From a virus: a stretch of DNA of 31,476 nt. Shown in pieces: positions 20,226 through 22,268 of the stretch. Every line of letters begins with the position of its first letter. Position 1 is the first letter of the stretch. Location of the stretch: IMG/VR virus record IMGVR_UViG_3300015372_000010, positions 1 to 31,476 of that record. The stretch is one strand, 5' to 3'. Below the pieces are notes generated by a model. The model did not search any database. It saw nothing but the letters and a program-made list of their open reading frames with translations, and was not told where the DNA came from. A program made the translations under genes and the position numbers.

Positions 20226-21577
20226 GGAAGCTTTGCCAATCCTGCATCGACAAAGAGATTCGCCAGCTTAAACTTCACCAGACTGGAGTTGTTAAGAATG
20301 GAGTTCTTATCCTCTTGGAGCGTGCGAATAAATACATCGGCGACAATCCTACCGCCCACTGGACCAAGGGTAACGCCATTAGCTTTCTTTGACGCCTCAT
20401 AGAGGATATAGAACCACAACGGAGTACCCGATTGGAACGCAGGAAGCTTTGTAATCTCTGATGGAGGGATTACAGACTCTCCCATGGCGCGGGCGACATC
20501 CTGTCCCGAGGCCATTCCATAGGCATCCGCTCGCACCAGGTTGCGGAAGGCCAACACATTACTTCCCGAAGCCTCAGCTCCTGGAATGGGCAATACGAAC
20601 AGAGAAGAACTGATAAGGGGGTCGATCTTGCGGGAGATGTTCTGCCCGTCGGTGTCGTTGGGATCGGCAAGTTCCGCGACAAAATTCCCCCAAGCAATCT
20701 GACGACCGGCCGGAAGCTGTCGCCCACCTCGAAGATCAGGCTGAGTAGCAGAGAAAACCTGAATCTTACCCGTTGTCTCATTCAACTCATAGGCACGGCG
20801 CACCATGGAATGCCCAAAACGATAAGCCGCGACAGAGAATTCCACAGGAGTACGAGGAGCAATGGGATTCGCTGGCTTATAGAAACGAGGCAGGGCACCA
20901 CTACGGGTATCATCGACAATGGGCTGCCCTACGAAGTGAGGCAATACCTCATCGAGAATGATAGATTGATACCGAACGAGAACCGCATGGCGGGCATCCG
21001 CGAAGCTCATTCCCTGATCGATAAACTTGTTGTGGAGTAGCAGGAATGCCACGTGGATCTGGGAAATGATTTCATTCTCATCATTGCGACCCTCGACGAG
21101 AATGGCAGATCCGTCCGCATTACGCGGGAGATCGATTACTCCATTAGGGTTCGGATTCTGGACCTTAAAGTGTTTTCCGTCAGCCTCGTAGAGTTGAGGA
21201 CTACCTTCCGGTCCATCCCCATAGACAGAATCCAAATCGAACGCCAGCGTCCTTACATTCCGCGGAAGCGTCGAAATGTTAACCGGCCGGGTTGGGGAGG
21301 GAGTGTCGTCGAGCGTCAAATCATGATCGAGGAATTGACCAAAGTAAGTAAAGACCGACAGCATGCCAGGATTGTTTTCACTGTCGGCATTGGGGTCCAA
21401 CATAGTTTGCGCGAGATCCGCAAGATCCTGATTCGTTGGCGACGTGAATCCCTTAAGATTGGGAAACATCGTCACGAATTTAGATTGCGGTTCAGCAACC
21501 GCCGCAGAGGGCGCCACCAAAAGAACAGTTAATAGAGCCGCGAATAGAACTGCGATGAGTTTCTTAGTCGCCATCAT
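20222..21577 (-). CDS. Exported animal-type (myeloperoxidase-like) heme peroxidase
   Basis: 451 residues with an N-terminal signal peptide (MMATKKLIAVLFAALLTVLL..., cleavage likely after AVA near residue 28). Residues 80-88, GQFLDHDLTL, hold the distal-site set: Gln81, Asp84, distal His85 and Ca-binding Asp86. The distal Arg/Glu pair is in VEGRNDENEI (Arg164, Glu167), followed by SQIHVAFLLLHNKFID. The proximal heme ligand is His256 in AYRFGHSMVRR, and Asn346 in FRNLVRA fits the residue that bonds to it. The C-terminus (LGPVGGRIVADVFIRTLQED) is typical of bacterial members. The family oxidises substrates or halides with hydrogen peroxide using heme. All key residues are present, so it should be active once exported. 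It overlaps the peptidase by 14 bases and the next head gene by 4. I know of no standard role in phages. Confidence 0.93.
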   Translation of the reverse strand: MMATKKLIAVLFAALLTVLLVAPSAAVAEPQSKFVTMFPNLKGFTSPTNQDLADLAQTMLDPNADSENNPGMLSVFTYFGQFLDHDLTLDDTPSPTRPVNISTLPRNVRTLAFDLDSVYGDGPEGSPQLYEADGKHFKVQNPNPNGVIDLPRNADGSAILVEGRNDENEIISQIHVAFLLLHNKFIDQGMSFADARHAVLVRYQSIILDEVLPHFVGQPIVDDTRSGALPRFYKPANPIAPRTPVEFSVAAYRFGHSMVRRAYELNETTGKIQVFSATQPDLRGGRQLPAGRQIAWGNFVAELADPNDTDGQNISRKIDPLISSSLFVLPIPGAEASGSNVLAFRNLVRADAYGMASGQDVARAMGESVIPPSEITKLPAFQSGTPLWFYILYEASKKANGVTLGPVGGRIVADVFIRTLQEDKNSILNNSSLVKFKLANLFVDAGLAKLP

Positions 21578-22268
21578 AGGGTTCCGCCTTACGTGATGCT
21601 ATGGGCCTATCGGTGGGGATACAGGCTTCGCCATCCTCCCTGAGCAGTCGATCCAAGGTCTCCACCGGTACGTACCCTCTGCCTCTGATCCCGTAGTCCG
21701 AACCCCATGAATTGATCCAGACTACCACATCCTCCTTAAAGTCGGGGTGGTTTGGCCAAACACCGTGGGCCAGGATGCAGTGCCCGCCGACTAAGCTTCC
21801 TTCCGCTCTAACCAAGCCACGCTCGTCAGTTTCATACATTGAAGAATACCAGTTGATACCGAGTAATACTGGACCACGACGAGAAAGAGTCTGTAAGACG
21901 TCGTCGATACCAAAGCCCCAATAGTAACTCTTAACGTTGCCGAGCATCTGCATAGCTTTAGCCCCGGCAAGGACACTTGCACCATCGGAGTAGTCATTTC
22001 CCATCTCACGATCTTTGGCCACAACAATGGGCCAATGCTGCCGACACCATTCATCGCTGATATCGTATCGATGAGGACTAGCCGCTAACTCAGCTCCCCA
22101 ACCAAAGATGACACACTGACCCTCTTGTCCTTGGTCGAGAACGTTAAGTCCAGGCTTCCATATCCTTTTCTTAATGGGTATTGGTTTACCCAATTGTCTA
22201 CGGATAGGGAAATTCCTTGATTGATCGTCAAAATAGACTTTGCGATCAAGAATACGATCGTTAGGCAT
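21564..22268 (-). CDS. Papain-like (C1) cysteine peptidase
   Basis: 234 residues from ATG 22268 (MPNDRILDRKVYF). This start is chosen because GAGGA lies upstream at good spacing and it overlaps the PL7 gene stop by 8 bases; an in-frame start at 22310 is less likely. The catalytic set is plain: oxyanion Gln46 and nucleophile Cys52 in LDQGQEGQCVIFGWG (six apart, as in papain), His163 in SLVGGHCILAHGVW, and Asn186 in VVWINSWGSDYGIRGRGYV, the C1 signature NSWG...G-Y. There is no signal peptide and only a short N-terminal part, so no large inhibitory propeptide. Family identity is firm. Its target (phage protein processing, or a host surface protein if carried in the virion) is unknown. Confidence 0.9.
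   Translation of the reverse strand: MPNDRILDRKVYFDDQSRNFPIRRQLGKPIPIKKRIWKPGLNVLDQGQEGQCVIFGWGAELAASPHRYDISDEWCRQHWPIVVAKDREMGNDYSDGASVLAGAKAMQMLGNVKSYYWGFGIDDVLQTLSRRGPVLLGINWYSSMYETDERGLVRAEGSLVGGHCILAHGVWPNHPDFKEDVVVWINSWGSDYGIRGRGYVPVETLDRLLREDGEACIPTDRPIASRKAEPYDGD

What the first reader, a model, noticed from the sequence alone, without database searches (positions are those of the whole stretch)
21564..22268. Papain-like peptidase without signal peptide or long propeptide
Gln46, Cys52, His163 and Asn186 with NSWG are intact. A C1 peptidase is unusual in a phage head region, which already has a separate prohead protease candidate (18148-19275). It may process the large lyase protein, act as virion cargo on host surface proteins, or control the peroxidase. 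None of these can be chosen from sequence.
Basis: partly seen in the sequence, partly recalled or inferred. Interest (0 to 1): 0.7.

Follow-up and report, generated by a model that had tools for sequence, protein, structure and literature searches.

The report
Papain-type protease in phage head module
A phage, probably of an actinobacterium, carries a genuine papain-like protein-cutting enzyme right among the genes that build its head; the enzyme family is already known in many phages, but its fixed place beside the portal gene hints that it may ride in the virus particle, which is untested.

Summary
AlphaFold2 gives a confident papain fold (pLDDT 91.7); the nearest solved structure is the bacterial enzyme xylellain. 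It has no signal peptide, but its conserved first ~28 residues align only with xylellain and pro-forms of cathepsins, so it probably carries a mini-propeptide.

It is not a rarity. It belongs to PHROG 16701, found in 52 isolate-phage records and hundreds of IMG/VR contigs; published work already notes xylellain-type peptidases in tailed phages. Links to the lyase and peroxidase fail: the lyase lies near it in 2 of 187 loci, the peroxidase in 3.

What is notable is position. In its well-supported clade (100/99) all eight phage rows carry the gene in the terminase-portal-capsid module; in the window's own lineage it lies between portal and the gp21-like protease/scaffold and diverges in step with head genes. 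No MuF protein was detected in six contigs of that lineage; terminase-related phages without the peptidase have MuF (4 of 6) and, in two, an ADP-ribosyltransferase beside it. I favour a head-associated enzyme, perhaps injected; mechanism unproven.

The parts
21564..22268 (-). C1A (papain-family, xylellain-type) cysteine peptidase, 234 aa; Gln46, Cys52, His163, Asn186
22185..22268 (-). codons 1-28: short conserved N-terminal segment (LDR..FD..SR.) that aligns with the C-terminal part of cathepsin propeptides
   Evidence: VIA-align rows that start at model residue 1-2 are xylellain and proenzyme chains (28 of 50 rows), rows of mature chains start at residue 8 or later; Asp14 182 of 182 (partly inside a search pattern)
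22274..22278 (-). GAGGA, Shine-Dalgarno-like, 5 nt before the ATG; the start codon overlaps the stop of the upstream gene (8-nt overlap)
   Evidence: read by eye
22261..25491 (-). 1076-aa protein with alginate-lyase-2 domain (aa 261-480) and SLTATPTLTV-type repeats; neighbour, lyase domain missing in L002
20222..21577 (-). animal-type haem peroxidase with signal-peptide-like N-terminus; neighbour, not a constant partner
19272..20225 (-). 317-aa protein of unknown function between peptidase/peroxidase and the maturation protease; kept in L001, L002, L018
18148..19275 (-). maturation protease (gp21/assemblin-like N-terminal domain) fused to a scaffold-like helical C-terminal part
16698..17663 (-). 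major capsid protein
   Evidence: PF25209 2.9e-14, phrog_1650 8.8e-53
27687..29228 (-). Mu-type portal protein
   Evidence: PF06074 2.4e-40, phrog_113
29225..30802 (-). large terminase subunit; nearest isolate phages are Streptomyces phages, about 41%

Best explanation
Shown: a papain-fold (predicted), xylellain-type cysteine peptidase with intact catalytic residues, member of a phage-borne family, whose gene overlaps its late-gene neighbours and, in this lineage, is a long-standing member of the terminase-portal-protease/scaffold-capsid module. Inferred: it is made late in the cytoplasm as a self-inhibited enzyme whose ~28-residue N-terminal segment lies along the active-site cleft as a cathepsin propeptide does, and is switched on by removal or displacement of that segment. 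Inferred and favoured: it is associated with the head. Its gene occupies the place right after the portal where related phages encode a MuF-type minor head protein and an ADP-ribosyltransferase, so I think it goes into the procapsid with the portal complex and is ejected with the DNA to cut one or more host proteins (about 0.3); second, it trims a virion protein during assembly (about 0.2). The confidence below is for 'head-associated', the sum of the two; the peptidase identity itself I hold at about 0.97.
For: Fold: pLDDT 91.7; xylellain 3ois Foldseek E 1.1e-9, Z 20.7 over 208 residues, profile E 4e-17. Pro-like N-terminus. Position: window, L001, L002, L018, L019, L020-L023 all have the gene between portal and the protease/scaffold and capsid genes; next after the portal among called genes in L018-L023. 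The clade of 9 rows holding the window has support 100/99 (careful tree of 69 rows; SH-aLRT 99 in the 138-row quick tree); all 8 phage rows of it lie in the packaging/head module, L032 and L080 with other terminases. Peptidase identity falls in step with head genes: 80/72/45-46% against portal 86/83/48-54% and capsid 85/84/38-48%. Across 25 contigs where terminase and peptidase are both seen, 12 lie within 5 kb against 5.9 expected (P 0.005, relatedness not corrected). MuF profile: 0 of 6 contigs of the window lineage, 4 of 6 terminase-related phages that lack the peptidase (2 over the cut-off). Microdon gp9 beside MuF ends in an ART-like stretch (1ojq E 6e-4); the same-place gene of Bogota is annotated ADP-ribosyltransferase.
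Against: In jumbo phage XacN1 the C1 peptidase ORF382 is named as a potential lytic enzyme and is not among those the authors report as packed in virions (passage seen), though it sits on a very long branch. The wider family lies in many other places: lysis cassettes of Gordonia and Arthrobacter phages, next to ribonucleotide reductase (6 of 128 upstream neighbours), tRNA arrays, bacterial chromosomes. No head-targeting domain is known in it. PF04233 misses many MuF proteins, so its absence is weak. Terminase closeness is not significant at 3 kb (P 0.06).
Confidence: 0.5

Rival explanations
1. An unpackaged, late cytoplasmic protease that cuts host (or defence) proteins during infection; its place among head genes only sets the time of expression.
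For: Catalytic residues nearly invariant over 187 distinct loci while contexts differ widely; family members also stand alone in bacterial contigs; XacN1 member not reported in virions; no signal peptide.
Against: In the window's clade the gene stays in the head module across different terminases and keeps pace with head genes.
Confidence: 0.3
2. A second morphogenetic protease that trims the portal, the 317-aa neighbour or another virion protein during head assembly (the second half of the head-associated reading above; not additional to its 0.5).
For: Gene order portal-C1-(317-aa homologue)-protease/scaffold-capsid in L018, and C1-(317-aa homologue)-protease/scaffold-capsid in L002; a pro-like N-terminus fits an enzyme activated after assembly.
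Against: A gp21/assemblin-like maturation protease with scaffold is already present; terminase-related phages lack the peptidase (0 of 6).
Confidence: 0.2
3. A lysis enzyme or lysis accessory, as annotators suggest for Gordonia phages.
For: Homologues lie between endolysin and holin genes in GMA2, Sixama, Lilbeanie, Aleemily; endolysin families among neighbours, e.g. phrog_291 in 5 of 128 and phrog_880 in 5 of 123; BetterKatz gp29, a cysteine protease-like protein, is predicted as endolysin (passage seen; homology not tested here).
Against: 13 of 15 rows labelled lysis fall in the other deep clade of the family; in the window a transglycosylase-LysM lysin sits 18 kb away.
Confidence: 0.1
4. 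Dedicated processing of the lyase/repeat protein or control of the haem peroxidase.
For: Overlapping genes in the window and L001.
Against: Lyase near in 2 of 187 loci, peroxidase in 3 of 187; L002 keeps the peptidase without the lyase domain; L018-L023 keep it without either; in the L190 phage the peroxidase lies about 50 kb from a distant C1 homologue.
Confidence: 0.04

Closest known systems
PHROG 16701 'peptidase' phage family (e.g. Streptomyces phage Wakanda gp80, Caudovirales GX15bay QBQ74839)
   Same: 40% identity over 93-98% of the length, same catalytic residues and N-terminal motif
   Different: GX15bay's is not in a recognisable head module; Wakanda's lies two genes after the terminase, far from a capsid module in the stretch seen
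Xylellain (PDB 3ois), bacterial short C1A peptidase
   Same: best solved match by profile, Foldseek and VIA-align; N-terminus also aligned
   Different: 16-18% identity, longer (267-268 resolved residues), cellular gene
MuF minor head proteins and MuF/polyvalent effectors (SPP1 gp7, Mu gp30, MuF toxins)
   Same: gene position right after the portal, beside the terminase; published models include proteases and ADP-ribosyltransferases as mild MuF effectors (passages seen)
   Different: no MuF domain detected, stand-alone enzyme
T4 gp21 / assemblin prohead proteases
   Same: a protease encoded among head genes
   Different: different fold and catalytic class; that role is filled by 18148-19275

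Membership tests
C1A papain family, xylellain-type (phage branch, PHROG 16701) | Gln-Cys-His-Asn in papain order | tested here: met
C1A papain family, xylellain-type (phage branch, PHROG 16701) | papain fold | tested here: met
   predicted model, (Z 20.7, 208 aligned, 3.3 A); distances between catalytic atoms were not measured
C1A papain family, xylellain-type (phage branch, PHROG 16701) | profile match to phrog_16701 | tested here: met
   E 2e-44
C1A papain family, xylellain-type (phage branch, PHROG 16701) | thiol-dependent peptidase activity, E-64 sensitivity | not testable with these tools
   needs bench work
Pfam PF00112 as Pfam calls it | score over the gathering cut-off | tested here: not met
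   13.4 bits against 20.7; a detection limit of the model rather than of the fold
MuF minor head protein | MuF domain (PF04233) | tested here: not met
   no match in the window record; so it may at most stand in the same place
MuF minor head protein | gene directly after the portal | tested here: met
   in L018-L023; in window, L001, L002 other genes are inserted between
MuF minor head protein | present in virions, bound to portal | not testable with these tools
   needs virion proteomics
Prohead maturation protease of gp21/assemblin type | gp21/assemblin fold | tested here: not met
   papain fold; the gp21-like gene is 18148-19275
Anti-phage defence proteins (PADLOC) | profile match | tested here: inconclusive
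   none at E 1; no known positive was scanned alongside

The most novel reading that the evidence does not exclude
In this phage lineage a stand-alone papain-type protease has taken over the MuF position of the head module: it is packaged with the portal as a mini-propeptide zymogen and injected with the DNA to cut host proteins, in parallel to the ADP-ribosyltransferase that terminase-related Streptomyces phages encode beside their MuF gene.
Probability: 0.27. Interest if true: 0.75.

Novelty: new member of a known kind. Interest (0 to 1): 0.42.

Why it matters
Phage papain-type peptidases are common, yet I found no tested function in print. This lineage ties one branch to the head module, which turns 'some hydrolase' into a direct question: is it in the virion, and what does it cut? 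If injected, it would add a proteolytic counterpart to T4 Alt-type and MuF-type effectors.

Tried and rejected
Processing of the lyase or control of the peroxidase: rejected as a general role by distribution. Prohead protease role: given to 18148-19275 instead. Lysis role for this branch: made unlikely by the tree, not excluded. Neighbour profiling with seed HMMs grown locally missed many terminases (for instance those of L032 and L080), so its T/L/R labels are lower bounds; terminases were then sought by PHROG/Pfam profiles in whole records. For one search two weak hits (L088, L043, E over 1e-5) were dropped before counting, and 23 further contigs of the 50 had no terminase hit. PF04466 found nothing (0 of 35), PF03237 1 of 35. 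A first gene caller made long antisense artefacts and was replaced by a codon-based one. The A1-A3 search patterns contain the Gln/Cys motif, so Gln/Cys conservation is partly built in. Seven short or fused rows were left out of the 138-row tree (set) and two long-branch rows out of the 69-row tree. Catalytic-atom distances could not be measured (no coordinates given). PADLOC: no match. The C1 homologue in the L190 phage is distant (QSWG) and not counted in the window's clade.

Full report
What is there. It starts 8 nt inside the end of the upstream 1076-aa gene, behind a GAGGA motif, and its own end overlaps the start of the peroxidase gene by 14 nt, so the three genes look translationally coupled in one late transcript (inference).

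Is it a peptidase. Pfam's papain model alone scores below its cut-off (13.4 bits against 20.7), but PHROG 16701 'peptidase' matches at 2e-44, and a profile of 16 relatives finds xylellain (3ois, 4e-17) and cathepsins in the PDB, with the DQG..GsC, GGH and NSWG motifs aligned. AlphaFold2 on a 70-row alignment gives pLDDT 91.7, pTM 0.88. Over 189 loci (187 distinct) Cys is kept in 189 of 189 aligned rows, His in 187 of 187, Asn in 186 of 187, Gln in 188 of 189.

The short N-terminus. The N-terminal segment up to about residue 28 is kept throughout the family (Asp14 182 of 182, Ser17 173 of 183 aligned rows; part of it lies in one search pattern). In the VIA-align list, 28 of 50 rows begin at model residue 1 or 2; by title or chain length these are xylellain and proenzyme chains, while rows of mature enzymes begin at residue 8 or later. 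I read this as a mini-propeptide running along the cleft. That is an inference from alignment ranges; residues 1-10 have low confidence (mean pLDDT 62), 11-20 moderate (80).

How common. tblastn finds 52 of 50,697 phage records, mostly actinophages, plus Stenotrophomonas and Xanthomonas jumbo phages. Two scans of IMG/VR confirmed 174 and 373 stretches (overlap between them not counted, and only the best 80 of each were fetched); one scan of genome contigs confirmed 13 (same pattern type, so a rough comparison only). PMC10380794 states that short xylellain-type C1A peptidases were acquired by Myoviridae and Siphoviridae (passage seen). So the family is known.

Surroundings across the family. 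I reduced the loci to 142 clusters at 80% identity, 130 of them viral, and scanned 128 upstream and 123 downstream neighbours (window's own left out). Endolysin, holin, terminase, portal and ribonucleotide reductase families lead the lists, none in more than 6 members. A tree of 138 rows shows two deep branches; 13 of 15 rows that I could label as lysis context lie in the branch that does not hold the window. Annotated Gordonia and Arthrobacter phages show the gene in the lysis cassette.

The window's own branch. A careful tree of 69 rows puts the window with L001, L002, L018, L019, L020, L032, L080 and the bacterial contig L096 at 100/99 support. All eight phage rows have the gene in the packaging/head module: terminase-portal-C1-protease/scaffold-capsid in L018-L023 (in L018 the terminase is cut by the contig end), the same with fibre, lyase and peroxidase genes around C1 in window and L001, and with peroxidase and repeat protein before it in L002; L032 has C1 just before terminase and portal, L080 has it after them, the portal in these two judged by position. 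L096 shows no head genes among those called. Pairwise identities of C1 fall with those of portal and capsid. In the wider branch, of 50 contigs 25 had a terminase hit at E 1e-5 or better; 12 of these 25 lie within 5 kb of C1 against 5.9 expected from random placement (P 0.005; 0.04 at 1.5 kb, 0.06 at 3 kb, 0.001 at 8 kb; relatedness not corrected).

The MuF slot. The window's portal is of the Mu type (PF06074 2.4e-40). Six phages with related terminases lack the peptidase (0 of 6). The MuF profile matches four of them (Microdon and Bogota below the cut-off, MT835568 and vir525 above; Amavida and Mwe-JY05 not); in Microdon it is the gene right after the portal, followed by a 1125-aa protein whose end resembles a C3-type ADP-ribosyltransferase ('C3-type' is my recollection of what 1ojq is), and Bogota's counterpart is annotated ADP-ribosyltransferase. 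In the six contigs of the window's lineage tested (window, L001, L002, L018, L019, L023) PF04233 finds nothing; L032 has a weak match besides C1, L080 none. PMC5576092 says muf genes lie immediately downstream of portal genes and discusses proteases and ADP-ribosyltransferases as mild MuF toxins; PMC5512222 describes injected effectors and MuF fusions (passages seen). Hence the favoured, unproven reading: a head-associated, perhaps injected, protease. It is not a MuF protein.

Against it. XacN1's C1 peptidase was not listed among the enzymes packed in virions (passage seen). The gene moves among contexts in the family at large. PF04233 is an insensitive probe. All of this leaves an unpackaged host-directed protease about as likely as injected cargo.

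Neighbouring proteins. The maturation protease at 18148-19275 is supported by T4 gp21 (Z 8.9; Foldseek 3e-4, probability 1.00) and weakly by herpesvirus proteases, on a weak model. The lyase and peroxidase are lineage extras. The host is probably an actinobacterium: the lysin has an Rpf-like transglycosylase and LysM, and the nearest terminases are from Streptomyces phages.

Verdict. Observation confirmed; a new member of a known phage peptidase family; its fixed seat in the head module is the part worth following.

Noticed in passing
window 20222-21577 (-): Animal-type haem peroxidase (PF03098) with a signal-peptide-like N-terminus inside a phage late operon; no tblastn match in 50,697 phage records, only three other IMG/VR contigs seen (those of L001, L002, L190).
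   Followed up: partly
window 22261-25491 and 5637-7292 (-): Two structural-region proteins share SLTATPTLTV-type repeats of about 20 residues; the alginate-lyase domain is present in some versions (window, L001) and absent in L002.
   Followed up: partly
L034:3654-6110: A KatG-like catalase-peroxidase (PF00141) directly after a C1 peptidase in another viral contig: a second, unrelated peroxidase beside this peptidase.
   Followed up: no
L191:4858-8235 (Streptomyces phage Microdon gp9): 1125-aa hypothetical protein beside the MuF-like gene whose end resembles an ADP-ribosyltransferase (1ojq, E 6e-4).
   Followed up: partly
L148:6850-7425 and seven near-identical loci: A 191-aa protein follows the C1 peptidase and precedes a portal-like gene; no Pfam match.
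   Followed up: partly
window 640-1080 (-): HNH endonuclease (PF13392) ORF near the lysis genes.
   Followed up: no
L098, L103, L100, L102: Relatives of the peptidase stand alone in bacterial contigs (Streptomyces, Solirubrobacteraceae, proteobacterial MAGs) with no phage genes recognised nearby.
   Followed up: partly
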